DNA from: Candidatus Poribacteria bacterium
Lineage (GTDB): Bacteria > Poribacteria > WGA-4E > WGA-3G
Assembly: GCA_022827185.1 (NCBI GenBank)
Contig: JAJDTM010000013.1
Coordinates: 85,508 to 149,507 of the forward strand
Length of the DNA: 64,000 nt
Direction: 5' to 3'
The translations under genes were made by a program, and so were the position numbers. The notes below the pieces were generated by a model. The model was not told the origin of the DNA. It did not search any database and saw only the letters and a list, made by a program, of their open reading frames with translations. This document shows positions 2,690 through 52,228 of the stretch, one piece after another (the stretch's first letter is position 1; each line of letters starts with the position of its first letter).

Positions 2690-2747
2690 TGTTATCTCCT
2701 TCATCGTTTTCAAAGTCAGTGAATTATCCACTGGCTATTACTGAAAC

Positions 2748-2890
2748 AGGACTTACACAAATTTAGCACGCGATGGTAGATTTTTTTAGTTCTAAACCCC
2801 CTAAATCCCCCTTATCAGGGGGACTTTAAGAGTTTAAACCCCCTAAATCCCCCTTATCAGGGGGACTTTAAGAGAGAGTCCGTAAGTCCT
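2748..2890. repeat. MITE-like element, family 1 (AGGACTTAC ... GTAAGTCCT)
   Basis: This element fills most of the gap between the LamG gene and the third dioxygenase gene. It is bounded by AGGACTTAC and GTAAGTCCT in inverted orientation and contains two direct copies of a CCTAAATCCCCCTTATCAGG-type hairpin block. The same terminal repeats bound elements near 20.4, 35.2, 39.95, 44.4 and 58.2 kb. No coding capacity. Confidence 0.7.
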
Positions 2891-3014
2891 ATGAAAAATG
2901 AATCTCGCCCGATAGGTATTGGTCACTGAGGCAGCAAGAATAATCTGGCTTCCTCTGTATACGATTATACCATTTAGATGTTTCGTTTGTCAAGTAGCAC
3001 TTTCCAATGTTTGA

Positions 3015-20648: not shown

Positions 20649-21911
20649 ATGAAAAGAAGAAATTGGTTAGTTACCACAGTTTTGATGGCATCAATTTTCG
20701 GCTTATGCATAAGCCTTCTAAGTTGTGCCACAAATAAAATAAATCTGCGAAAAACACTGGATACGAAGGAAACCCTACAGGTGCAGGCATATTGGGATCC
20801 AATTGCGGATGCCTCGCTCGGTTTACCCGATCATACGCCAAAACATGCCGCGCTATTTAAAAACCTTTCACCCGCGCACCCCAGTCAAGAATATGACGTA
20901 GACGCTTTCAAAGCCTTTTTTCCGAAAGGATCTGTTCCTGTCGGACACGTGTGGGAACTGGATATGAACGAAGTCCTCCCGTTTCTCCGCCAGTTTCACG
21001 CCGGAGCAACCGCGGAGATGCATATCAACCCAGGTGGAGAAGGTGCCATAGAGGTATTTGGTCGGCGTATAGTTCTGATAAAGGTAGGTTTGGAGTCAGA
21101 GGGTGCGTTCGCATGTCTTCGCGCACTTTCGGCGACTCATGCCGAAATCGTCTTCAGAATTCATGCCGAATTTCTATTGGATGAGGAGGCGCGTGCCTAC
21201 TTTACACCCGCACAATTCACCGGACGGTTGATACTCAATCGGAACAGTGGAACGATTCGCGATTTTTGGCTCCATCTCCCACCGCGTAAGACCAATGTTG
21301 ACATCAACGCCTTTGGCAGTGCGGATATGGTTTACGTGCCGCGCATGGAACTGATCGCACAAAACGCGCATGACCAGAGTGATATTGCCTGGGAGACTGC
21401 CATTACCGAAAACGAGGTGAAAGACCTGTTAGAGGCTTCCTTCTATAAGTTTTCCGAAATTGAGAGGCTCCCTATTGAGGAGGCTGTTGCACAAGCACAG
21501 GCGGAGAACCGCCCTATTCATGTGATTCTCACCTGGGGTGTGTTTGACGACGAATCGTGCTGAGCGAGCGGTAAAACCTTGAGGACAGTTGTCCTCTCCG
21601 ATTCAAAAATCGTAAAATTGCTCAATAAGCACTATGTCAATGTATTCCTTCTGATTCGGGATCTGCGTGAACTTCAGAACGGGACGAAGGACGAGTTAGT
21701 AAGTAAATTCGCAAATACGGTTTCCACAACGTTTGAAGCGGCTGTCGCGCAGGGCGTAGATGGTTCGGTAAACAGTTTTGTACTATCGCCTCAATTGGAG
21801 TTGATAGGTCATTTACCTTATCAGGATCTAACAAAACCAAACGAGGACATTGAGGTCATTAACGAGACATACCGGACATTTCTAAAGGATGCTTTGACCA
21901 AAAATAGGTAG
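20649..21911 (+). CDS. selN: Selenoprotein N (SelN/SELENON) homolog 1, lipoprotein, UGA-encoded Sec305
   Basis: Read through the in-frame TGA at 21561-21563, the gene encodes 420 residues. A lipoprotein signal with lipobox LLSC (C26) predicts a periplasmic lipid-anchored protein. Blocks shared with eukaryotic SELENON: FRIHAEF (169-175), FTPAQFTG (185-192), VPRMEL (230-235), then AQAENRPIHVILTWG and DDESC-U-ASGKTLR, followed by SDSKIVKLLNKHYVNVFL of a thioredoxin-like fold. A GAGGAC-AGTT-GTCCTC hairpin starts 17 nt after the TGA. SELENON is an ER redox protein; a periplasmic thiol/selenol role is inferred. This is the shortest copy, without the C-terminal domain of the other three. Confidence 0.9.
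21564..21596 (+). promoter_or_regulatory. Bacterial SECIS element of selN copy 1
   Basis: After the Sec codon, 17 nt lead to a perfect 6-bp stem GAGGAC/GTCCTC with loop AGTT, G being second in the loop. Spacing and loop G fit the bacterial SECIS rule recognised by SelB. Confidence 0.8.
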
Positions 21912-21967
21912 GTGCGATTTGGAAGGAAACACAGAAGTCACACTTAAGCGAAAGGTAGGAAGCTATC

Positions 21968-23440
21968 ATGTTACTAACACTCATACGCCAACAGTTCCTC
22001 TCTCATCTGATGAGTGCTCGCTTTTTTGCTGCCGTTATCATTACTCTCCTTCTTGTTGTTTTCAATACGCTTGTGCTTATTGATGAATACGAGCGTCGAC
22101 TCGCTGACTACAACATTCAAAAAACAGTTCATCGCCAGAAAGTGGAGGCGGCAGAAACTTATTCAACTTTAGAACTGTTTATTGAACGTCCACCAAATCC
22201 GTTGAGTCTCTTTAGTACAGGATTAGAAAAACAGCTTGGAAGTACGGTTGAAATCTATTATAGCCTTGTCCCGTTGATTTCCAATGCTTCCGCGCGATAC
22301 TTAGCGAACCCGTTTTTAAACCTTTTTTTAAAGATTGATCTTGCCTTTATCTTTCAAGTGGTACTGAGCCTACTTGCCCTGCTTTTTGGCTACGATGCCA
22401 TTTCTGGAGAACGGGAAACTGGCACCTTGCGGCTCCTTGTCTCCCAGCCAGTATCGCGAAGTTCTCTCCTTGTTGGTACATATATCGGTGCTATGATTTG
22501 CCTGTTACTGCCATTGCTTTTGAGCCTGTTGTTGATTCTGATTCTATTATCAACAACCAGTTCAATTCAACTCAGTCCGGATGACTTCCTCCGAATCAGC
22601 GGGATTTTCCTAACGACAATTGCGTATGTCTCCATTTTCTATCTGATTGGACTCTTTATTTCCACCATGTCTCAACGGACCGCCACCTCGGCCATGCTCT
22701 GTATGTTCTCATGGGTAGTTCTGGTCATCCTTTACCCAACCTGGAGTCAATTTACCATGAATCCAGTCGGCGATACGCACGCTGAAAAATCCTCAGTAGA
22801 GCGACAAGTAAATCAGATTTGGGAAGAAGTTGACAGAGAAAAACGCCGGTTCGTAGCAAACAGCCCACTTATGGGCAAGCCACCATGGTTTAATCTCACG
22901 GGAAAAGGCGCGGTCGCTTGGGGAGACGGACGATATAAGGTAAATCTGGAATTGGATCCACAATCAGAGGAACTCGTTCCTCATGTCCAAGAGTATTATA
23001 AGACCATAAGCGCATTGGAAATCCGCTTAGCCAAAAAAACAGCTCTGATCCGAGAACAAAGTTTGGAAAGGACAGATATTCAACAATCAAGGTGGGATGA
23101 ACTTTTGATGAAGCTAAGTCCGGCAAGTCTCTATAGGTTTGCAACAGCCGCTTGGGTGGGAACCGATTTGGATGGCATGCTTGATTTCGCTGAAGCCACA
23201 CAGAAGTACCATCAAGCACTCATTAACTATTTTTACCAAGAGGATGCCTTTGCCAGTCGACTCTGGTTTGCTTCTGACAAGGGTATTGTGGATTGGTCGA
23301 ACTTGCCCCAGTTTCACTTTGATCGTAAAGATGTCTGGGTCAACGCACACCGGGCGATTCCTGAACTTTTTGTATTGTTAGTCATGAATCTGGTTCTCTT
23401 TGGCGGCACAGTTCAGGTTTTTATCAGAATGGATGTATAG
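21968..23440 (+). CDS. ABC-2 type permease (NosY/DUF3526-like) 1
   Basis: 490 residues. One membrane segment near the N-terminus (residues 17-37), a long outer loop, then five to six segments between about 120 and 265 and one at the C-terminus. The motif YDAISGERETGTLRLLVSQPVSRSSLLVGTYIG is diagnostic for ABC-2 permeases of the NosY/gliding-motility type. The large soluble part (about 270-455) fits the DUF3526 pattern. No ATP-binding partner is adjacent. It lies between the first selN and a WD40 gene; AGGAAG precedes the ATG. Confidence 0.87.
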   Translation: MLLTLIRQQFLSHLMSARFFAAVIITLLLVVFNTLVLIDEYERRLADYNIQKTVHRQKVEAAETYSTLELFIERPPNPLSLFSTGLEKQLGSTVEIYYSLVPLISNASARYLANPFLNLFLKIDLAFIFQVVLSLLALLFGYDAISGERETGTLRLLVSQPVSRSSLLVGTYIGAMICLLLPLLLSLLLILILLSTTSSIQLSPDDFLRISGIFLTTIAYVSIFYLIGLFISTMSQRTATSAMLCMFSWVVLVILYPTWSQFTMNPVGDTHAEKSSVERQVNQIWEEVDREKRRFVANSPLMGKPPWFNLTGKGAVAWGDGRYKVNLELDPQSEELVPHVQEYYKTISALEIRLAKKTALIREQSLERTDIQQSRWDELLMKLSPASLYRFATAAWVGTDLDGMLDFAEATQKYHQALINYFYQEDAFASRLWFASDKGIVDWSNLPQFHFDRKDVWVNAHRAIPELFVLLVMNLVLFGGTVQVFIRMDV

Positions 23441-23605
23441 CGTATTAATTTAAATGCTGTAAGAAGGTAAAAGTTTTCACATCTGTAGCAAATCACGTGG
23501 CATCGAAAAAACCACAAAGATTGAATTTGTGAACCATTTTAAAAGCCAAACGCCACTATTTAACTGGCATATCAACTACCTTTTATACAAGAGGAGATAC
23601 GGAAA

Positions 23606-24634
23606 ATGAAGGTACTAAAATTGGCAAGTCTCGTTCTGCTGCTGAGTGTTCCCCTGTTTGAGACAAACAGCGGGGCACAAAGTTTGTCTCAAACGGTTAA
23701 AGCCCGTATTGATGTTCAGCAAGGGGCAATAAATGATATGGTGTTTTCTACGGATGGCAGACATCTCGCGATTGCGAGTACAAAAAGTCTCCAACTCTAT
23801 GATGCCAAAACTTACAAAGAGCTTATCTCGTTTACCGGACATACAGATTCGGTGTTAGCGGTAGCACTCTCTCCCGACGGTAAGCTTCTGATTAGCGGCG
23901 GTCAGGACGAGACGGTCCGGCTGTGGAGAACTGACACCGGTGAACTCGTTCGCACCCGCGAAGAACATTGGGGACACGTCAATGCTCTCGCATTCTCTGC
24001 CGATGGCGAAATGTTTTGGAGTGGGTGTAACAACGACAGAGAGATTCGATCTTGGTTTTCGTATGACGGCGGCAAGAGCAGCAAAAGGCAGGGTACCCTA
24101 CCCTACATGAAGCCTAAAGATGTATACACTGCAACGGTGTTTTCACCCAACGCCGAAATCTTAGTAAGGGCAAGCACCGCCACTGCCCCCGAACTCGGAG
24201 ATGGGTTCCTTATTTTCTTTATTTCCCTGCACGGCACGAGAACTTCAACTATTTTCAGAGCAACGCATGCCGATCCGGTCAATGTCTTAACCCTTCATGC
24301 CGACGGTAATCTCCTCGCCACTGGCAGCGCGGATAAGACAATCCAGTTGTGGAATATAAAAGACACGACGCAACCGAGCCATATCCTCTCTAAACACACC
24401 AGAGGTATCACGGCTATAGCATTTTCAGACCCTGGGAAACTGATTGCCAGTGGAAGTTCGGACAAAACCATTCAGTTGTGGGATGTTGAGACAGGGAAAC
24501 CTCTTGATACGCTTACAGAACATACAAGCATGATTACTGCTGTAACCTTTTTTGGCGATAAAACACTTGCCAGTGGGAGCTCCAACGGCACAGTTATCCT
24601 GTGGAACCTAAAGGGAACCGATTTAACTGAGTAA
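23606..24634 (+). CDS. Secreted WD40 beta-propeller protein 1
   Basis: 342 residues with a signal peptide ending at about NSGAQS. WD40 units are evident: GHTDSVLAVALSPDG ... DETVRLWRTDTGE, NVLTLHADGNLLATGSADKTIQLWN, GITAIAFSDPGKLIASGSSDKTIQLWD and ITAVTFFGDKTLASGSSNGTVILWN, about seven blades. The blade with FSADGEMFWSGCNNDREIRSWFSYDGG is shared with the two other WD40 proteins of the cluster. It is probably a periplasmic scaffold for neighbouring membrane or selN proteins (inference from context). AGAGGAGAT precedes the ATG. Confidence 0.88.
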   Translation: MKVLKLASLVLLLSVPLFETNSGAQSLSQTVKARIDVQQGAINDMVFSTDGRHLAIASTKSLQLYDAKTYKELISFTGHTDSVLAVALSPDGKLLISGGQDETVRLWRTDTGELVRTREEHWGHVNALAFSADGEMFWSGCNNDREIRSWFSYDGGKSSKRQGTLPYMKPKDVYTATVFSPNAEILVRASTATAPELGDGFLIFFISLHGTRTSTIFRATHADPVNVLTLHADGNLLATGSADKTIQLWNIKDTTQPSHILSKHTRGITAIAFSDPGKLIASGSSDKTIQLWDVETGKPLDTLTEHTSMITAVTFFGDKTLASGSSNGTVILWNLKGTDLTE

Positions 24635-24759
24635 CTAAAATGCGGTTTACTGGTCAACAAAATATGCCGATGCTAAAACCTTGGACTTTAGAACACGGAT
24701 ACAGACTCCAGTGGGGACAGCGTATGTCAATACATTCAGACAGATTATAAGGCGGATCA

Positions 24760-26196
24760 ATGATGATTTGGCACATCCTTAAAAGAGAATTATTTGACCA
24801 TATCAATAGTTTGCGCTTCGCATTAACTACGTTCATTATGATTGCATTAATGGTAACCAATGCTATTGTGCACCTCCAGAAACACGCAGACCAAATCCAA
24901 GAGTATTCCAAGAACGTTACTGTATCCATCAACAAGTTGAAAGCGCAGACGCGGCTGTACACGTTGATCCAAAGGGGACCTGGTGAACTGTACAAACGTC
25001 CATCTGCGCTCTCCTTCATTGCCAATGGTGGTGATGCCTTTCTTCCGAAGCTTGTTATAGATGATGATTCTTGGACGGCAGGCGACGTGAAAAGCATAGC
25101 GACTGTAGGTTACCCCGAAACAAAACAGAAATCAAAAAATTTACGGCCGCCGGGCGTACCCTTGGATTGGGTATTTATCATCACGTATTTATTCTCTTTT
25201 ATTCCAATTTTATTTTCCTTTGATGCCCTTTCAGGCGAACGAGAACATGGAACGCTCCGATTGTGTCTTGCCAATCCGATTTCTAGGTCCCTGATAGTGG
25301 TAAGTAAATTCCTGGGGATACTCATCGCCCTCGTTCTTCCATTCACTTTTGCCTTTTTGTTGAACATAACCATTCTTTCTACATCGCCTTGGATTCAATT
25401 TGCTCCTGCAGACTGGGCACGCCTTGCGCTGGTCTTTCTCATTGTTTGTTGCTATGCCTGCATCTTCATTGCGGTCGGGTTGATGGTTTCTGCTCGGTTA
25501 GAGAGACGAATGAGCCTGGTCGTGCTCCTGTTGATTTGGGTAATAGTGGTGGTTTTTATGCCCCTAACGCTGGGGACACTCGCAGTGAAATGGTCAACAC
25601 CCATTCAAACGGTGCATCAGTTTCGCGCGACAAAGAGAGAATTTATAAATAACACCAGAACAGAAAATAGTCGTAAATGGATCCAAATGAAACAACACAT
25701 TGACCGGAATAAAGCTCAGAAAGATGAACTATTGTCTCTCCTGAGGTTCAAGATGGAGTGGGTGAACTTTGATAGAAATATTCGAGAGGATCTAAATCGG
25801 GAGTACTTAATGGCACAAATTAAACAAGTACAGCAAGCACGATTCGTGTGCCGTTTATCTCCAGCAGCGACCGTTCAATACACACTCGAATCAATGGCAG
25901 CCACTGGATTGAATCGACACCGACAATTCGTGGAAAACGTGCAGCTTTATACAAAACGATTTCGACAATTCATCGTCGAAATCGATAGCATTGATTCCGA
26001 AAGTCTCCATCTCATTGGTATTCCCGAAGGCATGTCTAATAAGCCAATCACCCCTGAACAGATTCCGATATTTGAGGATAAACTGACTTTTAGAGACTCG
26101 TTCAACTCAGCCTTAGTAGATATGTCGCTGCTCGTTTTATTTGCCGGTGTGTTTCTTTCAGGAGCATGTCTCTTTTTCTTACGCGCAGACGTATGA
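24760..26196 (+). CDS. ABC-2 type permease (NosY/DUF3526-like) 2
   Basis: 478 residues, paralogous to the permease gene two positions upstream: N-terminal segment, an outer loop, then FSFDALSGEREHGTLRLCLANPISRSLIVVSKFLG as the ABC-2 signature, several membrane spans (to about 275), a soluble region and a final span (LLVLFAGVFLSGACLFFL). Again no ATPase gene is next to it. The two permeases could form a heterodimer around a distant ATPase. The start follows AAGGCGG; a second ATG is adjacent. Confidence 0.87.
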   Translation: MMIWHILKRELFDHINSLRFALTTFIMIALMVTNAIVHLQKHADQIQEYSKNVTVSINKLKAQTRLYTLIQRGPGELYKRPSALSFIANGGDAFLPKLVIDDDSWTAGDVKSIATVGYPETKQKSKNLRPPGVPLDWVFIITYLFSFIPILFSFDALSGEREHGTLRLCLANPISRSLIVVSKFLGILIALVLPFTFAFLLNITILSTSPWIQFAPADWARLALVFLIVCCYACIFIAVGLMVSARLERRMSLVVLLLIWVIVVVFMPLTLGTLAVKWSTPIQTVHQFRATKREFINNTRTENSRKWIQMKQHIDRNKAQKDELLSLLRFKMEWVNFDRNIREDLNREYLMAQIKQVQQARFVCRLSPAATVQYTLESMAATGLNRHRQFVENVQLYTKRFRQFIVEIDSIDSESLHLIGIPEGMSNKPITPEQIPIFEDKLTFRDSFNSALVDMSLLVLFAGVFLSGACLFFLRADV

Positions 26197-26216
26197 ACCG
26201 GTGATTGGACAATTTT

Positions 26217-26358
26217 ACGCCAAGTTGGGAACCGATTGCGGATGCATCGCTCGGAATACCCAGTTACTCACAGAGGCACGAAATTCTTTTTACCGACGCA
26301 CCCGAGTCAAGAATATGAGGTAGACGCTTTCAAAACCTTTCTTCAAACTGAAAACGCA
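26217..26358 (+). pseudogene. Degraded fifth selN copy (N-terminal fragment)
   Basis: The fragment reads WEPIADASLGIP, then after a frame change PSQEYEVDAFKTF, closely matching WDPIADASLGLP and PSQEYDVDAFKAF of selN copy 1 (its residues 49-90). At least one frameshift separates the two parts, and nothing of the Sec region remains. The downstream ECF-type promoter is also like that of selN copy 1, so a larger duplicated block has decayed. Confidence 0.75.
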
Positions 26359-26367
26359 AAAAATTAG

Positions 26368-26394
26368 GCAACCGTTTTCTCAATATAGCGCGTC
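26368..26394 (+). promoter_or_regulatory. ECF-type promoter before the small secreted protein gene
   Basis: GCAACC, 17 nt, CGTC, followed by ACTATATATTGA. It shares the flanking AAAAAATTAG with the promoter before selN copy 1. Distance to the next ATG is about 240 nt. Confidence 0.6.
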
Positions 26395-26482
26395 ACTATA
26401 TATTGAGCGAGTAAATTGTGTTTCCAGCGTTTATTTTCAGCAGCCAGTGCGGGCATATCCAAACCTATTCTGATTGCTGAAA

Positions 26483-26499
26483 GGGTTGCGTAGCAACCC
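26483..26499. repeat. Short palindrome
   Basis: GGGTTGC-GTA-GCAACCC, perfect 7-bp stem with a 3-nt loop in the leader before the small secreted protein gene. Without a T tract it is more likely a REP-like repeat than a terminator. Confidence 0.45.
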
Positions 26500-26634
26500 G
26501 ATCTGATCCGGTCTTAATCGTGATGGGCGAATCACTTAATGTCTATGAAATCCGGCAGCTAATAACAGAATTACATTAAAACCTAAAGAGACTTCAGAAA
26601 TCTCAGTTGAGTTTCACAATAAAAGGAAAATAAA

Positions 26635-27147
26635 ATGAAACGCGTTTTGATACTTTTTCTGCTGATGAGTGGAATGCTAAGCTTTATAGCAATCTCATTA
26701 GAAGGTATACCTGTCCAAGAATCCTCAGAACATCCACAGCGGATCAAAATCCTTCTTGACCTTGCAGGTGAAAGTGAACTTATACCGGTAGCCCAAGAAC
26801 AGCTGCGTGAAGCATTTAGTAAAACCGAAGATATAGATGTCGTTACGGACATTGAAGCAGGCGTATCCTATGTGATCTCCGTTGTTCTCGTGGAAGCACG
26901 CGTTGGCGCAAATAAGCAAAAAACCGGAAATATCGCTGCCTGTATTCAGTATATTGACTATTTTGACAATAGTATTCTCAAACCGGATGTTGCTGTGTCA
27001 AATTGGGAACGTGTTAACCATCTCACAGTAAACTTGATTGAACATTCCCAGACAGGTTTGCACTTATTTCCTAAAAACGATTTAGAAAATATGATGAGCG
27101 GTGTAGTTTCCAAGTTTCAGAAACTATTTTTGGAAAAGGAAGAATAA
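26635..27147 (+). CDS. Small secreted protein, family A copy 1
   Basis: 170 residues with an N-terminal hydrophobic signal (RVLILFLLMSGMLSFIAISLEG). The mature part has alternating segments IKILLDLAGESELIPVAQEQLREAFSKTEDIDVV and VSYVISVVLVEARVG, then ACIQYIDYFDNSILKPDVAVSNWERVNHLTVNLIEHSQTGLHLFPKNDLENM. I do not recognise the family; the pattern resembles periplasmic proteins built from a beta-alpha repeat. A close paralog lies at 48868. Both are preceded by an ECF-type promoter about 240-250 nt upstream. AAAGGAAAATAAA precedes the ATG. Confidence 0.75.
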   Translation: MKRVLILFLLMSGMLSFIAISLEGIPVQESSEHPQRIKILLDLAGESELIPVAQEQLREAFSKTEDIDVVTDIEAGVSYVISVVLVEARVGANKQKTGNIAACIQYIDYFDNSILKPDVAVSNWERVNHLTVNLIEHSQTGLHLFPKNDLENMMSGVVSKFQKLFLEKEE

Positions 27148-27299
27148 AACAAGACTTACGCAAACACTCATGGGTAATTCTAATTTCTCAGGGCCCGGTA
27201 GAATTTGCTTTACATTTGTGATCTGCATTCCTAATCGCACTGGACATTGTTCACAAATTAATGAATTAAATTGTTAATCTTCATTTAAGGAGACAAGAA

Positions 27300-28994
27300 A
27301 TGAAAACCTTTGCTGTTGCTGTCCTTATCCTAATCATGATGAGTGGACAACTCAACGCCGACAACCACTCGGCAGCGAGCAACAAAATTAAACTTAAGCT
27401 TGATGACACTTCTGAGGTGTCTGTCCAGGGCTTTATTGCGCCGATTGGAGATACTGTGTCCAATTCCGGTAGGGACTGGCCCGCTTTGACAAATATGCGG
27501 GTTGTTGCACCGGAAAAGCAGTATCCGGCATCGGTTTTTCACGCTTTTCTGCCAAGCCAATTGGCTTTTCTTCCAAGTAAACGGGTTTCGGTGGGTGAAC
27601 TCTGGAAGGTCAAGCCGGATGGGGTACTGGAATTGCTGCGGCAGCTGCACCCCAATCCGAGTGTGAATATGCATATTAATACGGGAGATTCGTATGGGCT
27701 GTGGGCATGCTTACGTGCTTATAATGATGAGTTTGCCGACATCGCGTTTCGTATCCATGCAGAATTTGTCTTTGAGGATGGTTGGTTCACACCTTCCCAG
27801 TTTGCGGGACATCTTGTGATTGATCGAGCGAAAGGGCGCGTCGCGTTTTTCGTAATGCGCGTTCCGGGGGGTCCGGTCAACTTTGATTTCAATCGGATAA
27901 TAGATGGCAGCCGTGTAGCGGGTGCAGGTTTTTGTTCGCAAGTCGAACTTCGCGCTGGCCCGCAGGAGATTCTGGAAAATGTCGAATTCACAGAAGCGAT
28001 TACCCAAGAAGCTGCGGAACGCGCCTTGATACTCCGCTTCTATAAATCCCAACAAATTAATTGGGTACAACCGGACCAAGTCTTGGAGATGGCACACACC
28101 CAACAGAAACCGATTCACGCTATATCTATAGATGGTCCCTTGGATAATGAGTCGTGCTGAGGGAGCGGCAAAAGCCTGAGGACAGGTGTCCTCAACGATA
28201 ACCGTGTTATTAAATTCTTGAACGAAAACTTCATCAATGTTTGGATATCGAATGTAGAATTAGAGCGCACGCCCTTTAAACAGAAATTCATGGGACTCAG
28301 ACAGCAGCAAGGCTTCAAACCGTTTGACAAAACGCGCCCGTTAGCACAAGCCATCATGAAAGGCTGGAAGAAACACTCACCCGCAGATTCCTTGGTGCTA
28401 TCAACGGAACTTGAACTGATGGGAAGACTTCCCGTCAATGAACGTTCTTCACCCTATAATGGTGCCAAAGGGTATCTTGTATTTCTCCAAGAATCCTTGG
28501 ACAGAAAGCTCCCAGGGTTGGTCGAGAAATCCTCAGAACCGCAACCCAAAGATTGGGATGCTCACCTCGAAACCGCCGTCGAATCAGGTGTTATTGTAGA
28601 CACGGGTTTGAGCGTTGTGCTTACCGGTGAACATTCCGAGAAAGAAATTCTCAGTGTTTTTCGGACATCTGAGACTGAGTCTCAAGGTTACACACTCATT
28701 GAGATTGATGCGACAGCCTTTAAAGAGGGTGGCGTGCTTATGATTGATGTTTGGGTCGGGGAATCTGAAGTTTCAGGGTCGTTTGACCTGTTTGCTGCGG
28801 ATACTACAGAACTTGTGCCTGACAATGCCCTTGTCTCCGTACGGGATATTCCAACGAATCAGAGAGAAGTTATCAAGTATCCTTTTGATCGGGGTGGAGT
28901 CTTTAAGTTAGGTGCTATTGGTAACGCCAGCAAGAAGGGAAAAATTAACGGGTTCCTCGCAAAAATTTCTGTAGAACCGACTGCTGCTAAATGA
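27300..28994 (+). CDS. selN: Selenoprotein N (SelN) homolog 2, secreted, UGA-encoded Sec287, with C-terminal domain
   Basis: 564 residues when the in-frame TGA (28158-28160) is read as Sec. Signal peptide VLILIMMSGQLNA. SelN blocks: CLRAYND...IAFRIHAEF, GWFTPSQFAGHLVIDR, GPLDNESC-U-GSGKSLR, then NRVIKFLNENFINVWI of the thioredoxin-like half. Residues from about 430 form a beta-rich domain (ILSVFRTSETESQGYTLIEID, KGKINGFLAKISVEP) also found in selN copies 3 and 4 and in the ECF sigma factor at 33800. A SECIS hairpin GAGGAC-AGGT-GTCCTC starts 17 nt after TGA. AAGGAGACAAGAA precedes the ATG. Without Sec the gene would look like two separate frames. Confidence 0.92.
28161..28193 (+). promoter_or_regulatory. 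Bacterial SECIS element of selN copy 2
   Basis: 17 nt after the Sec codon, stem GAGGAC/GTCCTC, loop AGGT. The loop resembles the GGU-containing loop of the E. coli fdhF SECIS. Confidence 0.82.
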
Positions 28995-29009
28995 CAACTG
29001 ATAATTGAC

Positions 29010-29060
29010 AGGACTTACGCAGCGTCCTTTGCTGACGAGGTTTTAAACCTCACCAGCGGC
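29010..29060. repeat. Half of a family 1 MITE-like element
   Basis: AGGACTTACGCAGCG followed by an imperfect GAGGTTTTAAACCTC palindrome, without a matching right end. It sits directly before the second WD40 gene, as a complete element does before the third. Confidence 0.45.
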
Positions 29061-29099
29061 GTGTGGGCCGTAGGTACTCAATTGAAAAGGATACGAAAA

Positions 29100-30149
29100 A
29101 TGAAGATGACCAGATTAACAAGTTTTATGCTCCTTTTAACCCTTGCTATGTTTCTCGTGAACGGTTTTGCCGAGGGGTTGCCTAAATACGCTATCACTCA
29201 AATTAATACCGGTCAGGGACCTATTAATGCTATGACATACTCTCAATCCACGAATCAACTTGCGATAGCTGCCGCGAATAATATCCATATCCATGATGCG
29301 GATACCCACAAAGAATTGATGGTGCTTGCTGGACATACGGATTCGGTGCAGGCAGTCGCCTTTTCTTTGAACGGCAAATTGATCGTCAGTGGCAGCTCAG
29401 ACAAGACAGTGCGGTTGTGGGAAGCAGAGACGGGAAAACTCAGACGTGCCCGCGACGAACACACAGCACCTGTTAATATTGTCGCCTTTTCTGCGAAGGG
29501 CGATAAGTTTTGGAGTGCAAGTAGCAAAAACAACATGCTTCGGTCGTGGTACTCGCGTGATGGGGGCCGTTGGAGTTCCAGTACCTCCTCATCAGATATT
29601 GAGAAGTCAATCACGGCAGCGGCGTTCTCACAGTCCGGTAAAATTTTTGCAAAGGCTGTTGAACTGACAATGGCTGTTAAAGACAAGTTTCAATTCGCTG
29701 TTTTCTTATCTGAGATAGACCCTTACAAAGATTTTGAACCTATTCTCACAAAACATAGAGAAAAAATCGTCGCTTTAACGATTTCTCCCTCCAGCGAGTT
29801 TATCGCAACTGGGAGTTCTGACTGGACAATAGAGGTCTGGAAAATTACAGATACGGAGCCACTACGGGCGGATACGGATCTCGGAGATCCGCTGTGGATT
29901 CTCAAAGGACACGCAGGAACAGTCACTACAGTGGCGTTCTCCCCGAACGGCAAAATACTTGTGAGTGGTGGTGCTGACCAAAGGGTCCGATTGTGGGACC
30001 TCACAACTGGACAACACCTTCACACCTTCTCGAACCATACAAGCAAAATCAGTGCTGTCGGATTCGTGAGAGACGATATGCTTGCCAGTGGGAGTTCAGA
30101 TGGCACCGTTTTCATTTGGAATCTGGATAAAATCGTCTCAACGGATTAG
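29100..30149 (+). CDS. Secreted WD40 beta-propeller protein 2
   Basis: Start set at the ATG after AAAAGGATACGAAAA, 13 codons inside the longest frame; 349 residues. Signal peptide SFMLLLTLAMFLVNGFAEG. WD40 blades: GHTDSVQAVAFSLNGKLIVSGSSDKTVRLWE, FSAKGDKFWSASSKNNMLRSW, IVALTISPSSEFIATGSSDWTIEVW, GHAGTVTTVAFSPNGKILVSGGADQRVRLWD and ISAVGFVRDDMLASGSSDGTVFIWN. Paralog of the genes at 23606 and 35338; each follows a selN gene or the ECF gene that shares its domain. Confidence 0.88.
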   Translation: MKMTRLTSFMLLLTLAMFLVNGFAEGLPKYAITQINTGQGPINAMTYSQSTNQLAIAAANNIHIHDADTHKELMVLAGHTDSVQAVAFSLNGKLIVSGSSDKTVRLWEAETGKLRRARDEHTAPVNIVAFSAKGDKFWSASSKNNMLRSWYSRDGGRWSSSTSSSDIEKSITAAAFSQSGKIFAKAVELTMAVKDKFQFAVFLSEIDPYKDFEPILTKHREKIVALTISPSSEFIATGSSDWTIEVWKITDTEPLRADTDLGDPLWILKGHAGTVTTVAFSPNGKILVSGGADQRVRLWDLTTGQHLHTFSNHTSKISAVGFVRDDMLASGSSDGTVFIWNLDKIVSTD

Positions 30150-30288
30150 CGTTTATGTTATAATCTACATACGCAGACGTGCAAGATAACAGACCTACAG
30201 AGTTTTTCACAAACACGACTTTTGTTAGTTAATCTCGCGTGAATCTCTACAATTTTTTCAACGTGTGCTAACTGTAAGGAGATTAAAA

Positions 30289-31995
30289 ATGAAAACCTTA
30301 ACCATTATCTCACTCGTTCTAATAGTGATGAGTGGACAACTCTACGCCGATAAGCACTCGGCAGCGAACGATAAAATTACACTTAAACTTACGGATACTT
30401 CAGAAGTCTCAGTAAAAGGTTACATCGCTCCAATTGAGAATACTGGCTCCGATTTCCATGTGAGATGGGACGCATTAGCAAATCTGCGGGTTGCTGAACC
30501 CGAAAAACAGCACCCGACATCGGTTTTCCAATCTTTTCTCCCAACTAAACCGGTATCGGTGGGTGAACTCTGGGCATTAGATGCAACGGGTGTCCTCGCT
30601 TTGCTCAGGCAACTGCATCCGAACCCCAATTTGTTCATGCACATCAATTCAGGGGATTCGTATGGTTTATGGGGGTGCCTGCGTGCTTACAATGCTCAAT
30701 ACGCCGACATTGTGTTTCGGATTCATGGGGAGTTCAGACTCGAAGATGGGTGGTTTACACCGTCGCAGTTTACCGGACATCTGGTGATTGACCGAACCGA
30801 GGAGAAGGTCGCTTTCTTTGAGATGTACGTCCCTGAAGGTGTCATAAACTTTGATGTTAACTGGAGGCAAGATAAAAACGACTCCCATTTTCATACGACT
30901 ACCGGTTTTTGCTCGAAAATTGAACTCCGCACTGGGAATCAAAATCTACTTGGAAACACCAAATTTACAGATACCATTACCCAAGAAGCAGCGGAACGCG
31001 CCTTGATACATAAATTCTATAGATCGGAACGCATTAACTGGGTGCCGCCGGAACAGGTATTGGAGATGGCAGAAGCACAGCAGAAACCGATTCATGTGAT
31101 CTCTATAGATGGGCCTTTGACAGATGAGTCGTGCTGAGGGAGCGGCAAAAGCCTGAGGGCAGGTGTCCTCTCCGACAACCGTGTTATTAAATTCTTGAAC
31201 GAAAATTTCATCAATGTTTGGGTATCAAACGTCGAATTAGGACGTACCCGGAATAAGCGAGCCTTCATTGCGGCGAGAATCCAGCAAGGCTTTAAACCAT
31301 TCGACAAAACGCATCCATTAGCAGAAGCAATCATCACGGGATGGAAACCGAGATCTCCCGCAGACTCTTTAGTAATCTCGACGGGTCTTGATGTGATGGG
31401 CAGGCTATCGGTCAATGAACGAACTTCGCCATACAACGGCGCGAAAGGTTACCTTTTATTTCTTGAAGAATCCTTAGATGAGAAACGTCCCGGATTGCCT
31501 GAGGTTGCCCGGCAACCGCCATCAATGGATTGGAATACTTTCCTCGAAACTGCCGTCGAATCCGAGGCTATTGCTAATGACGGTTTGCGCGTGGTGCTTA
31601 CCCGTGAGCATCCTGCACAAGAGGTTCTCAGCATTTTTCGTGCAGCCGGACAAGGCTTTCAAGACTATACCGTCGTGGAAATTGATACGACCGCCTTTAA
31701 AGAGGGTGGTGTGCTGACGATTACGATCTCAGTAGGCGATGCTGAATCTGCTGGCTCGTTTGATCTTTATGATGGTGAGACTGAACTCCCCACAGAAGGG
31801 CCACCTCGTGGTGCGCTTACCTCGGCATGGGATGTTCCCGCCAACACGCAGGGTAAAATCGAGTATCCTTTTGAGCAGGGAAAAGTTTTCAAGTTGGGGG
31901 CTACTGGTAGTTGGCTCAGTGAGAAAGGCAAAGTCAACGGTTTCCTCGCTGAATTTTCCGTGGAACCCACACCAGAAACGAGCGACGAAAATTAA
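30289..31995 (+). CDS. selN: Selenoprotein N (SelN) homolog 3, secreted, UGA-encoded Sec283, with C-terminal domain
   Basis: 568 residues with Sec at the in-frame TGA 31135-31137. Start chosen at the ATG after GTAAGGAGATTAAAA; signal peptide LTIISLVLIVMSGQLYA. SelN blocks: CLRAYNAQYADIVFRIHGEF, GWFTPSQFTGHLVIDR, VINFDVNW, AQQKPIHVISIDGPLTDESC-U, then GSGKSLR and FLNENFINVWV. The C-terminal domain starts near residue 430 (VLSIFRAAGQGFQDYTVVEID, KGKVNGFLAEFSVEP). The SECIS stem is GAGGGC/GTCCTC with a G-U pair, preserving the fold. Close neighbour and duplicate of copy 4, 58 bp apart. Confidence 0.92.
31138..31170 (+). promoter_or_regulatory. Bacterial SECIS element of selN copy 3
   Basis: 17 nt spacer, stem GAGGGC/GTCCTC (one G-U wobble), loop AGGT. 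Confidence 0.82.
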
Positions 31996-32053
31996 CCATA
32001 GGTCCGGTAGGTATAGTTTCATAAATATTTTAGATAATTGTGAGGAGATAAGC

Positions 32054-33721
32054 ATGAAAACCTTAAGCATTGCGCTACTCATTCTCATAGCGATGAGTGG
32101 ACACCTTAATGCCGACAACCCCTCGGCAGTAGATAACAAAATTACACTTAACCTTGATGACACCTCAGAAGTCTTAGTGAAAGGCTCCATCGCTCTGGCT
32201 GAGGAGAGTTTGTCCGATACTTTTAAGCAGTGGGACGCGTTGGTGAATCTTCGGGTTGCTGAACCCGAAAAGCAGCATCCCACCTCGGTTTTCCAAGGAT
32301 TTCTTCCAAAACAGCCGGTTTCGGTTGGCGAACTCTGGGTGCCAGATATGATGGGAGTTGTCCCCTTGCTCAAGCAACTGCATCCGAATCCCAATTTCTT
32401 TCTTCATATCAATTTCGGGGATTCGTTCGGTTTGTGGGCGTGTCTGCGGGCTTACAACGACCAATATGCCGACATCGTGTTCCGGATTCACGCCGAATTT
32501 AGACTCGAAGATGGGTGGTTTACACCTTCACAGTTTACTGGACATCTGGTGATTGACCGAATTGCGGAGAAGGTCGCTTTCTTTGAGATGTACGTCCCTA
32601 AAGGTGTCATAAACTTTGATGTTAACTGGAAGCGGGACAAGAATGCCTCCCATCATATTACAAGTACCGGTTTTTGCCCGAAAATGGAACTCCGTGCGGG
32701 GGCACAAGACCTTTTGGAACACATTAAATTCACAGCATCCATTACCTCAGCGGAAGCAGAACGCGCACTGATACTGCGCTTCTACAAGTCGCAACAAATT
32801 AACTGGGTCCCGTTAGCGCAGGTCCTGGAAAGGGCACAAGCAGAACAGAAACCGATGCATGTGATCTCTATAGACGGGCCTTTGACAGATGAATCGTGCT
32901 GAGGGAGCGGCAAAAGCCTGAGGGCAGGTGTCCTCTCCTACGACGAAAATATTGAATTCATGAACGAAAATTTTATCAATGCTTGGGTGTTGAACGGTGA
33001 ATTAGAACCCTCGCCTCGTAAGAAAGCCTCTATGGCACTGCTACGCGAGCACGACTTCAAACCGCTTGACAAAACGATTCCATTAGCGCAAGCAATCAAG
33101 AAAGGATGGAAGGAACACTCGCCTGCGGATTCTTTGGTGTTCTCGCCGGACCTTGAACTGATGGGTAGACTCCCTGTCAATGACCGCCATCCACCATACG
33201 ACGGTGCAAAGGGTTATCTTTTATTTCTCCAAGAATCCTTGGACGGAAAACTCCCTGGGTTACGTGAGGATGCTCCGATACATTGGGATACACTCCTTGA
33301 AACGGCTGTCGAATCCGGTGCGATGGTAGATGACGGTTTGCGGGTTACGCTTACGGATGAACATTCCGAGCAAGAGGTCCTCAGCGTCTTTCGGACATCA
33401 GAGACCGACGCGCAAAATTATACCGTTGTTGAGATTGATGCGACAGCGTTTGAAGATGGCGGCGTGCTTGTTATTGATGTTTGGGTTGGGGAATCCGAAG
33501 TGTCTGGTTCGTTTGACCTGTTTTCCGGTGACGCTACAGAATTCGCGCCTGCCAACGCGCTTGTTTCCGCACGGAATATTCCAACGAACCAGAGGGAAGT
33601 TATCAAGCATTCTTTTGACGGCAGCCAATTCTTTAAGTTAGGGGCTATCGGTAATTCCAGTGAAAATGGAAAAATCAACGGTTTTCTTGCGAAAATCTCC
33701 GTCGAAAGTGATTCAAATTGA
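32054..33721 (+). CDS. selN: Selenoprotein N (SelN) homolog 4, secreted, UGA-encoded Sec283, with C-terminal domain
   Basis: 555 residues with Sec at TGA 32900-32902. Start at the ATG after GAGGAGATAAGC; the longer frame upstream lies inside copy 3 and is not real. Signal peptide IALLILIAMSGHLNA. SelN blocks: CLRAYNDQYADIVFRIHAEF, GWFTPSQFTGHLVIDR, QKPMHVISIDGPLTDESC-U, GSGKSLR and FMNENFINAWV. The C-terminal domain (VLSVFRTSETDAQNYTVVEID, NGKINGFLAKISVE) follows from about residue 427. N-terminal half nearly identical to copy 3, C-terminal half closer to copy 2, suggesting recombination between copies. An ECF sigma gene with the same C-domain starts 78 bp later. Confidence 0.92.
32903..32935 (+). 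promoter_or_regulatory. Bacterial SECIS element of selN copy 4
   Basis: 17 nt spacer, stem GAGGGC/GTCCTC (one G-U wobble), loop AGGT. Confidence 0.82.
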
Positions 33722-33799: not shown

Positions 33800-35134
33800 A
33801 TGAAAAATGATGATGCCCAACTGATCCAACGCGTCCTTGCAGGCGAGCAAGATGCTTTTGCGAAATTAGTGAAAAAATACCAGAAGCCTGTCCACGCGCT
33901 TGCCTGGCGGAAAGTAGGCGATTTTCACATCGCTGAAGAGATTACGCAGGACACTTTCCTACAAGTCTACAAAAAACTGGGGACCCTGAAGGATCCACAT
34001 CGGTTTGAAGGGTGGCTGTATAGAATCGCTTCGCGCCAATGCCAAGCATGGCTTAGAAAGAAGCGGATGCAAACGCAATCGTTGGATGAAACCGACATCG
34101 ACCTGATAGACAACACGACCTATTCTCAATACATCGCTGAAGAACAGGCGAAAGCCGCAACAGAAGCACAGCGCAGTATCGTCCATAAATTGCTTGCCCG
34201 GCTACGGGAAAGTGAACGTACCGTCGTCACACTCCACTACTTCGGGGAGATGACATGTGAAGAGATTAGCCGATTTTTAGGAGTATCCGCAAGCACGGTT
34301 AAGAGTCGCCTCCGTCGCGCACGATTTCGCCTGAAGAAAGCGGAACCGATGATCCGGGAAGCATTGGAAGGGTTCCAAATTAGGGCGAGTCTCACCGAGA
34401 ATATCATGCAAGAGATCTCACGTATTGAACCGGTAATCCCTTCTGGCGGTAAACCGTTTGTGCCGTGGGCGATCGCCGCTTCAACCCTTGCGCTTGTAGT
34501 GATGGCACTTGGTGTCAGCAATCAGTACCAGAAACGCTTTCAACAGCCCTACAACCTTGATGCTACATCAGAAATGAGGGTAGAACTCGTTGATGCACCG
34601 ATTGTTCTGAATCTTGCATTGAAACCGGATGTGCGAAATCAACTCGGTAGATCCACTACATCTAATAAAGGTAGCGGGTTCACTACAAGCACAAATCAGT
34701 CCGAATACGTGCCAAGATTCCTCACCGCACAGACGAAGAAGGTAACACTCAACGATGAGAACCCATCGCAACAGGTTTTGAGTGTCTTCCGAACCCCAGA
34801 AACCACCTACCAAGATTACACCGTTGTTGAGATTGACACGACAGCGTTTAAAGACGGTGGCACACTCACTATTGATCTCAGGATCGGTCGTGCAGAGGCA
34901 GCAGCGGCTTTCATCCTTTTTGCCAGCGACACGGAACTCAACTCGGACGGGATGCCTAAAGTTATTCTTACCTCAGCATCGGGTATTTCTCCCGGTAAAG
35001 TTGGAAAACTCACGCATAGTTTTGATAGAGGTGCACACTTTAAGGTGGCGGCTACCGGTAATGCATTCAGTGGGAAGGGGAAGGTCAACTCTTTTCTCGC
35101 GACGATCTCCATAGATGCTAAGACTGATAACTGA
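33800..35134 (+). CDS. Membrane-tethered ECF sigma factor with SelN-type C-terminal domain
   Basis: 444 residues. Sigma2 at about 8-75 (DFHIAEEITQDTFLQVYKKL), sigma4 at about 135-180 (TLHYFGEMTCEEISRFLGVSASTVKSRLRRARF). A PSGGKPFVPW linker leads into one membrane span (about 222-241), then a conserved juxtamembrane part (PYNLDATSEMRVELVDAPIVLNL). Residues 313-444 (QQVLSVFRTPETTYQDYTVVEID, KGKVNSFLATISID) are the domain seen at the end of selN copies 2-4. The sigma part should be cytoplasmic and the C-domain outside, so release by proteolysis or signalling through the span is likely. GGAGGTAACGA precedes the ATG. Confidence 0.9.
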   Translation: MKNDDAQLIQRVLAGEQDAFAKLVKKYQKPVHALAWRKVGDFHIAEEITQDTFLQVYKKLGTLKDPHRFEGWLYRIASRQCQAWLRKKRMQTQSLDETDIDLIDNTTYSQYIAEEQAKAATEAQRSIVHKLLARLRESERTVVTLHYFGEMTCEEISRFLGVSASTVKSRLRRARFRLKKAEPMIREALEGFQIRASLTENIMQEISRIEPVIPSGGKPFVPWAIAASTLALVVMALGVSNQYQKRFQQPYNLDATSEMRVELVDAPIVLNLALKPDVRNQLGRSTTSNKGSGFTTSTNQSEYVPRFLTAQTKKVTLNDENPSQQVLSVFRTPETTYQDYTVVEIDTTAFKDGGTLTIDLRIGRAEAAAAFILFASDTELNSDGMPKVILTSASGISPGKVGKLTHSFDRGAHFKVAATGNAFSGKGKVNSFLATISIDAKTDN

Positions 35135-35337: not shown

Positions 35338-36360
35338 ATGAAGATAACGAAATTAGGAAGTTTTATCCTATTTCTAACTGTTGCTGTTTTTCTCACAAAT
35401 GGGTTTACTCAGGATTTACCTATGGGTGCCATTGCCCGAATTGATGTCGGTGAGGGACCTGTAAACGCTATCGCATATTCTCGATCCGCAAACCGACTCG
35501 CGATAGCAGCCGCAAACAGTATCCACATCTATGATGCAAGGACCTACAAAGCACTGATAGTACTTGCCGAACATACAGATTCGGTGTTAGCAGTCGCCTT
35601 TTCTCCAGACGGTAAACGGCTCATCAGTGGTGGATTGGACAAAACGGTACGGTTGTGGGACACGGAGACTGGGAGACTCAGACGGGTCCGAGAGGAACAC
35701 ACGGCACCTGTGAACACTGTTGCGTTTTCTGCTAACGGTAAAAGGTTTTGGAGTGCAAGTCGCGAAAACGATGCAATTCGGTCTTGGCATACACGTGATG
35801 CAGGTCGTCGGAGTTCGCAATCGTCTTCAAGGGAGGTGGATCTCATAGCCATCGCGTGTTCCTACAGAGGCGAAGTCAAGGCAAGGGTACTCAGTGGCAC
35901 ACCGCAGCAGTGCTTTGTTCAAGTTCCGAGGCTTGGTGAATGGCGTATTACAACTGGACATAAAGATTCAATTAATGTCCTAACGCTCTATCCAGATGGG
36001 AAAACCCTCGCGACCGGAAGTGCCGACAAAACGATCCAATTATGGAATAATGCGGACACCGACAAGCCGCTTTATACGCTTACAGGGCATACGGAAGGTA
36101 TTACTGCTATAGACTTCGCAGTGGACGCTAAACTTCTTGCCAGCGGGAGTTCCGATAAAACGGTTCGGCTGTGGGACCTCACAACTGGGCAGCCCATCCA
36201 GACACTCACAGGACACACGGGTGAAATTGGTGCGGTGACATTTTTGGAAGATAAGGCACTTGCTGGAATGGCACTCGCTAAAGGCAAGGCAGTTGCGAGT
36301 GGCGATTCAGATGGCACGGTTTTCATCTGGGATTTGAATAAAATCGCCGCAACGGATTAG
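35338..36360 (+). CDS. Secreted WD40 beta-propeller protein 3
   Basis: 340 residues with signal peptide FILFLTVAVFLTNGFTQ. Blades: HTDSVLAVAFSPDGKRLISGGLDKTVRLWD, APVNTVAFSANGKRFWSASREND, NVLTLYPDGKTLATGSADKTIQLWN, GITAIDFAVDAKLLASGSSDKTVRLWD and IGAVTFLEDKALAG ... VASGDSDGTVFIWD. The last blade has an extra GMALAKGKA insertion. Closest to the gene at 29100. Its leader is formed by the MITE-like element ending 13 nt upstream; AAGGATAT serves as ribosome binding site. Confidence 0.88.
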   Translation: MKITKLGSFILFLTVAVFLTNGFTQDLPMGAIARIDVGEGPVNAIAYSRSANRLAIAAANSIHIYDARTYKALIVLAEHTDSVLAVAFSPDGKRLISGGLDKTVRLWDTETGRLRRVREEHTAPVNTVAFSANGKRFWSASRENDAIRSWHTRDAGRRSSQSSSREVDLIAIACSYRGEVKARVLSGTPQQCFVQVPRLGEWRITTGHKDSINVLTLYPDGKTLATGSADKTIQLWNNADTDKPLYTLTGHTEGITAIDFAVDAKLLASGSSDKTVRLWDLTTGQPIQTLTGHTGEIGAVTFLEDKALAGMALAKGKAVASGDSDGTVFIWDLNKIAATD

Positions 36361-39800: not shown

Positions 39801-39906
39801 GATACCAGACAGTATCATCTCTGCCACTATTAATGCTGATAGGCTTTATGTGGCTACTAAAAAACGTGGGATGTTTCATATTTCGCTTGAAAACGAAAAC
39901 AATTAA
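36892..39906 (+). CDS. Membrane-tethered ECF sigma factor with Asp-box (BNR/Ycf48-like) propeller
   Basis: 1004 residues. Sigma2 (DFHIAEEITQDTFLKAYQEL) and sigma4 (TLHYFGDMSAAEIGSFLGVSVNTIKSRLRRAQ) in the first 185 residues, a membrane span near 221-243, the conserved NIDAQSEMTVEIIDASVVLDI stretch, then from about 320 a propeller with at least seven Asp-box loops, e.g. SSDSGETWKSL, STDLGDSWTEI, SIDGGKTWVSS, STDDGKSWHPF, STDGGQSWETL, SLDGGNTWKDL. The outer domain probably senses a glycan or protein at the cell surface. Two ECF-type promoters upstream suggest autoregulation. CGGAGGTAATCC precedes the ATG. Confidence 0.92.
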   Translation: MKNIDVELIHRVLDGDDNAFEILVKRYRKPVHALVWRKIGDFHIAEEITQDTFLKAYQELAKLKKPQSFASWLYVIAANQCSSWLRKKRLQTQPIEETSSAQLEKATYSGYIIEENERTAVETQREVVKNLLAKLQESDRTVITLHYFGDMSAAEIGSFLGVSVNTIKSRLRRAQQRLKREEPMVRAALEHFQITPNLTENIMREVSRMRPVPPSGGKPLIPVTLSAATAVLIFLIMGVGSQYLARFQKPYNIDAQSEMTVEIIDASVVLDIQAKPDLRNQAGHFDTIGKRGSTGPQLSEPVALGAARIEKETHPSTQQQWIQASGPEDGTVISGLMASSKGDIYAASSVGVYRLAPDAPMWTLVNTSVTIGNTTRMAERDDTLYLVATREVLASSDSGETWKSLGERPKGSPIGLVTTDEGLYLALDNQVFRSEDAGQQWIPLIDENAAGIILDIAAIENSVFVGTNQGLYRVHSGAWEKLRIETSKAIHSLTVSENNLYVGTGFDLAELESADGRIAYAGQLMGQLMGGEGSSAWEIFHSTDLGDSWTEITPTNITPMDKVSPSVKIFATGETLLAMGLMTTLRSIDGGKTWVSSGFNPDTFDVKSMMDSMMPTGLFPAIAVDENTLLKSGFFGVTRSTDDGKSWHPFMKGIVGTNVSNLVAFKNALYANTIMSIAKSTDGGQSWETLRLNSGESTPKSAEEVMPNDFLVSSQLTISDDIFYGIALKTEDELIIFRLSADGSVLIPIPGVPLFSSGPSIEKPKAASQKASKKDIVDNTPDSDEEADRVTEIAQWMDPAQQMEKYPSGFAVSGETFYVEYGGRLFRWKRGEREWFNTGLVATAAMTLEDIAEDLALAVSGETVYVGKRDGHLFRSLDGGNTWKDLTSNLPFRFEHFNAIVFADSTVFVATDSGVLMSADGEHWRGITDKTGGHTVIDRMAVAGTTVYGVGKSGAHLLNSHGEWEKISPEIPDSIISATINADRLYVATKKRGMFHISLENENN

Positions 39907-51983: not shown

Positions 51984-52153
51984 TCGTCTTAATCATTCGG
52001 TTAATGTCAATCTTCCACAGACAGACTTTTGCTGTAGGATCCTCACTGCGAAGCACTCCCAATCGCGACACTCACTACTGATAACTCATCGCTATTTTGT
52101 TGACTGCTGACTGCTGGTGGAAACAGGCTCCTGATTGCTAATTGCAGAATTAT

Positions 52154-52180: not shown

Positions 52181-52228
52181 ACCAAGTATTTAATCCGAAA
52201 TGCCAACACTCTTTTTTCAAAGGTAACT

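What the first reader, a model, noticed from the sequence alone, without database searches (positions are those of the whole stretch)
20649..33721. Four selenoprotein genes with in-frame TGA and matching SECIS hairpins
Seen: four separate genes each have a TGA in the context D-(D/N/E)-E-S-C-TGA-(G/A)-S-G-K-(S/T)-L-R. In every case the same frame stays open for 115 to 285 further codons and the downstream protein is homologous among all four. Seventeen nucleotides after each TGA comes a 6-bp stem (GAGGAC or GAGGGC with GTCCTC) and a 4-nt loop AGGT or AGTT. In two copies a stem base is changed to a G-U pair, so the fold is kept. Known: bacterial SECIS elements lie shortly after the UGA with a G early in the loop. 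Inference: these are true Sec codons, not four independent nonsense mutations. Standard gene callers would break each into two frames.
Basis: partly seen in the sequence, partly recalled or inferred. Interest (0 to 1): 0.95.

Follow-up and report, generated by a model that had tools for sequence, protein, structure and literature searches.

The report
Bacterial selenoprotein N gene cluster
Four neighbouring genes of an uncultured Poribacteria-type bacterium, among fifteen such copies in its genome, encode relatives of vertebrate selenoprotein N; each is predicted to insert selenium-containing selenocysteine at an in-frame stop signal, and the proteins likely act as redox enzymes, a family our paper searches did not find described in bacteria.

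Summary
Four ORFs carry one in-frame TGA in (D/N)ESC-U-(G/A)SGK(S/T)LR and, 17 nt later, a 6-bp stem with AGGU or AGUU loop. The same genome has tRNA-Sec(UCA) beside selB, selA, and a selD with its own TGA; TGA is also an ordinary stop here. The hairpin is RNA-selected: 170 of 172 distinct copies form a stem of at least 6 bp, against 18% when synonymous codons are redrawn.

The EF-hand segment of SELENON is absent. The genome has 15 copies, eight in tandem, each with one TGA in the match; 64 of 84 genomes of the phylum have the family (up to 17 copies), as does one deltaproteobacterial MAG. Cys and Gly replacements occur, and in four genomes it is fused, TGA included, to an ECF sigma factor with a hydrophobic segment. 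I commit to an exported selenol-disulfide reductase, possibly wired to ECF signalling. Sec insertion and activity are untested.

The parts
20649..21911 (+). SelN-like gene 1 (420 aa with the TGA read through); N-terminus has a lipobox-like LLSC (my reading); thioredoxin-fold part is residues about 266-420
21561..21563 (+). in-frame TGA, predicted Sec305 of gene 1
21581..21596 (+). SECIS-like hairpin, GAGGAC-AGUU-GUCCUC, 17 nt after the TGA
21968..23440 (+). ABC-2 type transporter permease between the SelN genes
   Evidence: Pfam ABC2_membrane_2
23606..24634 (+). WD40-repeat protein with hydrophobic N-terminus
24760..26196 (+). second ABC-2 type transporter permease
26635..27147 (+). 170-aa protein, no Pfam match
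27300..28994 (+). SelN-like gene 2 (564 aa), signal-peptide-like N-terminus, SelN core plus a C-terminal beta-sandwich domain
28158..28160 (+). in-frame TGA, predicted Sec287 of gene 2
28178..28193 (+). SECIS-like hairpin, GAGGAC-AGGU-GUCCUC
29100..30149 (+). WD40-repeat protein (ATG start; the ORF list gives a GTG at 29061)
30289..31995 (+). SelN-like gene 3 (568 aa)
31135..31137 (+). in-frame TGA, predicted Sec283 of gene 3
31155..31170 (+). SECIS-like hairpin, GAGGGC-AGGU-GUCCUC (one G-U pair)
32054..33721 (+). SelN-like gene 4 (555 aa)
32900..32902 (+). in-frame TGA, predicted Sec283 of gene 4
32920..32935 (+). SECIS-like hairpin, GAGGGC-AGGU-GUCCUC (one G-U pair)
33800..35134 (+). ECF sigma factor with one hydrophobic segment (best window starts at residue 221) and a C-terminal domain 47% identical to that of SelN-like gene 4
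35338..36360 (+). WD40-repeat protein
36892..39906 (+). second ECF sigma factor with a hydrophobic segment, fused to BNR/propeller-type repeats; edge of the neighbourhood

Best explanation
These four genes are bacterial relatives of selenoprotein N whose in-frame UGA is predicted to be read as selenocysteine by the genome's own Sec machinery, through a hairpin 17 nt downstream, likely giving exported selenol-disulfide reductases. Shown: homology to vertebrate SELENON; one TGA per copy at one conserved column; selected hairpins; selA, selB, selC and selD in the assembly. Predicted: a thioredoxin-fold domain (AlphaFold model) in which the UGA residue takes the place of the nucleophilic Cys of CxxC (U-x-x-G-K), with the preceding Cys beside it. 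Inferred: the selenol attacks disulfides of exported or surface proteins and resolves through the neighbouring Cys (C304-U305 in gene 1), a partner reductase then recharging it. Inferred: the shared C-terminal domain, the recurring neighbourhood and direct fusions with ECF sigma factors that have a hydrophobic segment mean that some copies report the outside redox state to transcription. The neighbouring ABC permeases and WD40 proteins are possible clients or partners, with weak evidence.
Against: No selenium or protein data. Pfam sees the thioredoxin domain only below its cut-off (in gene 1) and NCBIfam sees nothing. The second Cys of CxxC is absent. A lineage has Gly codons at the UGA position, so the residue is not indispensable in every copy. 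The eight-gene array on contig C38 lacks signal-peptide-like N-termini (by eye), so export does not hold for all copies. SelB over cut-off is in 75 of 84 genomes against SelN in 64, so SelN is not the only reason why the phylum keeps Sec. Within-column shuffling of synonymous codons still leaves 61.5% of copies with all six pairs against 77.3% observed, since most codons there are nearly fixed. The sigma-factor neighbourhood was seen in regions chosen for having SelN copies, in genomes rich in ECF sigma factors. ABC permeases were seen in only 2 of 10 regions and WD40 in 4 of 10.
Confidence: 0.85

Rival explanations
1. The selenoproteins are real, but their main work is signalling rather than catalysis: a periplasmic SelN domain senses redox state and gates membrane-tethered ECF sigma factors, with the Sec as the sensing residue.
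For: Four of 84 genomes carry an ECF sigma-SelN fusion matching P0160 over its full length with one TGA at the Sec site and a hairpin; 17 of the 120 listed relatives of gene 1 (678 found) carry sigma-70 domains; the sigma factor next to gene 4 shares that gene's C-terminal domain (47%); matching sigma factors lie beside SelN genes in 7 of 10 chosen regions, one of them cut by a contig end.
Against: Fusion was found in 0 of 197 SelN ORFs from the loci fetched up; ECF sigma factors with other C-terminal domains are very common in these genomes (window 36892-39906, 52142-55219, 58689-62090), so fusion may be a promiscuous habit; the signal-less array does not fit an outside sensor.
Confidence: 0.3
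2. The UGA is read through as an ordinary amino acid (Trp, Cys or Gly) by near-cognate tRNA or a recoded code, not as Sec.
For: A related lineage has GGC or GGA at this codon, so Gly can stand there.
Against: Full SelABCD set with UCA tRNA-Sec; TGA used as stop elsewhere in the window; hairpin selected beyond protein constraint in 172 distinct copies; exactly one TGA per copy.
Confidence: 0.03
3. The genes are decaying paralogues or assembly errors with nonsense mutations.
For: High copy number and tandem arrays are typical places for pseudogenes.
Against: TGA at one column in 209 of 209 hits that have a residue there; at least 103 codons open beyond it in the 178 of 197 ORFs whose end lies in the locus; present in 64 of 84 genomes.
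Confidence: 0.01
4. The proteins are calcium sensors like vertebrate SELENON.
For: Homology to SELENON.
Against: The N-terminal stretch of the fish protein that holds the EF-hand-like segment aligns to gaps in the bacterial proteins.
Confidence: 0.04

Closest known systems
Eukaryotic selenoprotein N (SELENON/SEPN1)
   Same: Homologous over most of the luminal part; S-C-U-G motif followed by SGK/R-x-L-R; thioredoxin-like domain around Sec (PMC7474598, passages seen); Sec codon in frame.
   Different: Bacterial proteins lack the EF-hand segment, use a bacterial in-frame hairpin instead of a 3' UTR SECIS, occur in up to 17 copies per genome and as fusions with an ECF sigma factor or, in one own-genome copy, an AhpC-TSA domain.
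Thioredoxin-fold exported oxidoreductases: 1sen (Rp19), AGR2/AGR3, DsbH, C-terminal domain of DsbD
   Same: Fold of residues 266-420.
   Different: U-x-x-G in place of C-x-x-C, with a vicinal Cys-Sec pair; extra N-terminal beta-rich domain that no structure match covered.
Eukaryote-type selenoproteins newly found with Sec in bacteria, such as SelO in the deep-Sep paper (PMC12013277, passages seen)
   Same: A family once thought eukaryotic found with Sec in bacteria.
   Different: Different family; selenoprotein N is not mentioned in that main text.
ECF sigma factors with C-terminal membrane and extracytoplasmic extensions (kind recalled, not searched)
   Same: Sigma regions 2 and 4, one hydrophobic segment, further domain behind it.
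   Different: The further domain is SelN with an in-frame TGA, predicted Sec.

Membership tests
Bacterial selenoprotein gene | in-frame UGA with conserved coding sequence beyond it | tested here: met
Bacterial selenoprotein gene | hairpin a short way after the UGA with unpaired adjacent G and U in the loop (as described in PMC8704476, passages seen) | tested here: met
   170 of 172 stems of at least 6 bp; 172 of 172 with adjacent GU in nt 24-27
Bacterial selenoprotein gene | bulged U in the upper stem (listed in PMC8704476) | tested here: inconclusive
   the 6-bp stem has no bulge; a U directly below it is present in 172 of 172, but it is the second base of a conserved Leu codon
Bacterial selenoprotein gene | SelA, SelB, SelD and tRNA-Sec in the genome | tested here: met
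Bacterial selenoprotein gene | homologues with Cys at the Sec position | tested here: met
   P0160 and P0236; protein records only, their DNA was not seen
Bacterial selenoprotein gene | selenium in the protein | not testable with these tools
   -
Selenoprotein N (SELENON) | sequence homology over the luminal catalytic part | tested here: met
Selenoprotein N (SELENON) | SCUG redox motif | tested here: met
   SCUG in genes 2-4, SCUA in gene 1; motif named in PMC12839072 (passages seen)
Selenoprotein N (SELENON) | thioredoxin-like domain around Sec | tested here: met
   predicted structure
Selenoprotein N (SELENON) | EF-hand calcium sensor near the N-terminus | tested here: not met
   segment absent in alignment A2; Pfam did not recognise it in the fish control either. 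So these are relatives of the catalytic core, not calcium-sensing SELENON proper
Selenoprotein N (SELENON) | N-terminal membrane anchor with the rest in an oxidising compartment | tested here: inconclusive
   window copies have hydrophobic, signal- or lipobox-like N-termini; the C38 array has none; no signal-peptide predictor was available
CxxC thioredoxin/PDI-type oxidoreductases | C-x-x-C active site | tested here: not met
   U-x-x-G-K instead; placement rests on the weak 2kuc alignment

The most novel reading that the evidence does not exclude
Selenoprotein N is a bacterial invention that eukaryotes inherited: bacteria hold the EF-hand-free catalytic core, expanded to 15-17 copies per cell and plugged into membrane-spanning selenocysteine-containing ECF sigma factors, and the disease-linked SRE hairpin just after the UGA of human SELENON mRNA is a living fossil of the bacterial SECIS that still sits over the same codons (LR..VL).
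Probability: 0.25. Interest if true: 0.93.

Novelty: new variant of a known kind. Interest (0 to 1): 0.76.

Why it matters
SELENON loss causes human myopathy, and a 2026 review (PMC12936836, passages seen) still calls its function and the role of its Sec enigmatic. A simpler, EF-hand-free bacterial core, some copies without a membrane anchor, with a tandem array of natural variants and with Cys and Gly replacements, gives a tractable system to find the reaction. It offers a possible origin of the SELENON recoding hairpin that can be tested by comparison: that review already notes that the SRE resembles a bacterial SECIS, but names no bacterial relative of the gene in the passages I saw. It adds a family to the bacterial selenoproteome that automated annotation cuts at the TGA, and it points to a sigma factor that would carry selenocysteine, a direct link between selenium and transcription (I ran no paper search for that link).
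Full report
WHAT IS THERE. The four TGA-interrupted genes exist as described. The motif search finds exactly four places, the frames stay open for 116, 277, 285 and 272 codons after the TGA, and a 6-bp stem with a 4-nt loop starts 17 nt after each TGA.

IS IT SEC? The window's assembly (6.1 Mb, 65 contigs, 92.7% complete) has one tRNA-Sec over the cut-off (77.5 bits; 17 weaker matches are below it), with anticodon UCA, 41 bases from selB; selA; and a selD that itself carries a TGA in CAGUASK. In the 14 control genomes these searches were over cut-off in 5 (tRNA-Sec), 2 (SelB), 1 (SelA) and 2 (SelD), and rang weakly in more; only over-cut-off hits are counted. TGA is not recoded generally: among 43 ORFs of at least 200 aa kept in the window, 15 end in TGA, 4 of them the Sec sites. 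In the phylum, 59 of the 64 SelN-bearing genomes have SelB over cut-off; the other five are 73-83% complete. A sponge metagenome study reports SelA and SelB in most symbiont bins (PMC5649159, passage). Selenium insertion itself cannot be tested here.

THE HAIRPIN IS SELECTED AS RNA. From the loci held at that point, 223 SelN hits were found; 209 have a residue at the site, and all 209 have TGA there and exactly one TGA in the matched core. These reduce to 172 distinct segments (13 from the window and own-genome loci L017-L019, 35 from L035-L064, 124 from genome contigs). Of them 170 have a stem of at least 6 bp in the allowed range, against a mean of 18.2% (maximum 25.0% of 50 draws) when each codon is redrawn from the genes' own synonymous usage, and the mean folding energy is -9.3 against -4.6 kcal/mol. 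In a fixed register 133 of 172 have all six pairs; 27 others have A-G at pair 4, and the best-stem search gives 26 copies a stem one pair longer with loop GGUC, which I take for the same set. A milder control that shuffles codons only within columns gives 61.5% with six pairs against 77.3% observed, so much of the pairing is fixed per column; the codon choice itself is extreme: Arg7 is AGG or AGA in 171 of 172 (129 and 42), while these two make up 328 of 1,800 Arg codons upstream, and Leu11 is CTC in 166 of 172. All 172 keep an adjacent GU in nt 24-27. This is what a SelB-read SECIS needs according to PMC8704476 (passages seen), except that no bulged U lies in the stem.

WHICH FAMILY. A search with gene 2 over 5.8 billion proteins finds, after 103 closer relatives, Selenoprotein N of the fish Salarias fasciatus at E=3.6e-23 (the few closer rows with an organism name are Candidatus Poribacteria). 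The fish record lacks the residues U-G at the site, probably because annotation skipped the UGA. Pairwise, gene 1 and the fish protein are 32% identical over 367 columns. The motif ESC-U-(G/A)SGK-x-LR matches the SCUG site of SELENON (PMC12839072, passages seen). Human SRE disease variants G463V, R466Q and R469W/Q (PMC3541580, passages seen) would fall on positions 306, 309 and 312 of gene 1 by simple counting; R312 is invariant among the 14 rows of A4. That counting is mine.

HOW MANY, WHERE. The own genome has 15 copies: four in the window, eight in tandem on contig C38, two on C44, one on C60, each with exactly one TGA in the matched stretch. Across the phylum 64 of 84 genomes have at least one (45 of 55 of the better ones), up to 17 copies, 445 matches in all by my addition of the table; four genomes had more candidates than were scored, so this is a lower bound. 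Named relatives are Poribacteria in 77 of 78 loci returned, and a Deltaproteobacteria MAG in one (L108; best 80 of 133 kept). That copy also has the TGA and a hairpin, and a search with it found eight relatives, one of them named as deltaproteobacterial. Other phyla were not searched further (one search failed).

REPLACEMENTS. P0236 (408 aa) reads ESCC-GSGK and P0160 reads ESCC-GTGK: Cys at the Sec place (protein records only, DNA not seen). In a lineage close to P0005, the codon is TGA in four, GGC in two and GGA in one of the seven loci read. In the two GGC copies the loop is AACU instead of AGUU while the stem stays; in the GGA copy the hairpin is intact. I read this as loss of the SECIS loop after loss of Sec, a small sample.

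SIGMA FACTORS. The ECF sigma factor after gene 4 has a hydrophobic segment and a C-terminal domain 47% identical over 130 columns to that of gene 4. P0160 is a sigma factor, a hydrophobic segment and a whole SelN; four genomes of 84 carry a full-length match with one TGA at the site and a 6-bp hairpin. In ten regions that I chose because they hold SelN copies, a match to the window's sigma factor lies beside SelN in seven (six of at least 1,300 bases, one cut by a contig end), WD40 genes in four and ABC-2 permeases in two; L205 keeps nearly the whole order of the window. An earlier look at 197 SelN ORFs found no fusion. These genomes are rich in ECF sigma factors, so the neighbourhood is suggestive, not proof.

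FUNCTION. I commit to an exported selenol-disulfide reductase: SELENON acts as a reductase in the ER lumen (PMC7474598, passages seen), the predicted fold is that of such enzymes, and the window copies have export-type N-termini (by eye). Steps shown: homology, TGA, hairpin selection, machinery. Steps predicted: fold and active site. Steps inferred: Sec insertion, reductase activity, export, ECF signalling. Calcium sensing is unlikely, since the EF-hand segment is missing, although Pfam missed it in the fish control as well.

NOVELTY. The paper searches named in Tried and rejected showed no description of selenoprotein N in bacteria; the 2026 review of the prokaryotic selenoproteome names neither selenoprotein N nor Poribacteria in its main text (its one 'selenoprotein n' match is another word). 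Subscription papers and supplements were not searched. An algal survey reports SELENON in algae almost only in Sec form (PMC7539508, passages seen), so the family is not only animal; the direction of any transfer was not tested. The resemblance of the SELENON SRE to bacterial SECIS is already in print (PMC12936836, passage); what is new here is a homologous bacterial gene with a SECIS-like hairpin at that place.

Noticed in passing
L143-L146 (unnamed relatives): ECF sigma factor and SelN domain in one ORF with one in-frame TGA and a 6-bp hairpin: a predicted selenocysteine-containing sigma factor.
   Followed up: partly
L175, L176, L177: Close relatives of TGA-bearing SelN genes with GGC or GGA at the Sec codon; the loop G is lost in the two GGC copies.
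   Followed up: partly
L018 minus strand 1249-3261: SelN core fused to a C-terminal AhpC-TSA/thioredoxin-like domain in the own genome.
   Followed up: no
L017 1733-15105: Eight SelN-like genes in tandem without signal-peptide-like N-termini, two starts overlapping the previous gene; two copies seem to have doubled C-terminal domains (by eye).
   Followed up: partly
36892-39906, 52142-55219, 58689-62090: Further long ORFs that begin with ECF sigma domains and continue into BNR/propeller-type or unassigned regions.
   Followed up: no
1863, 29011, 35143, 39910, 39989, 44569: GGACTTACGCA occurs six times in the window against a mean of 0.00 in shuffles; probably a dispersed repeat.
   Followed up: no
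55383-58121: 912-aa protein made largely of WD40 repeats.
   Followed up: no
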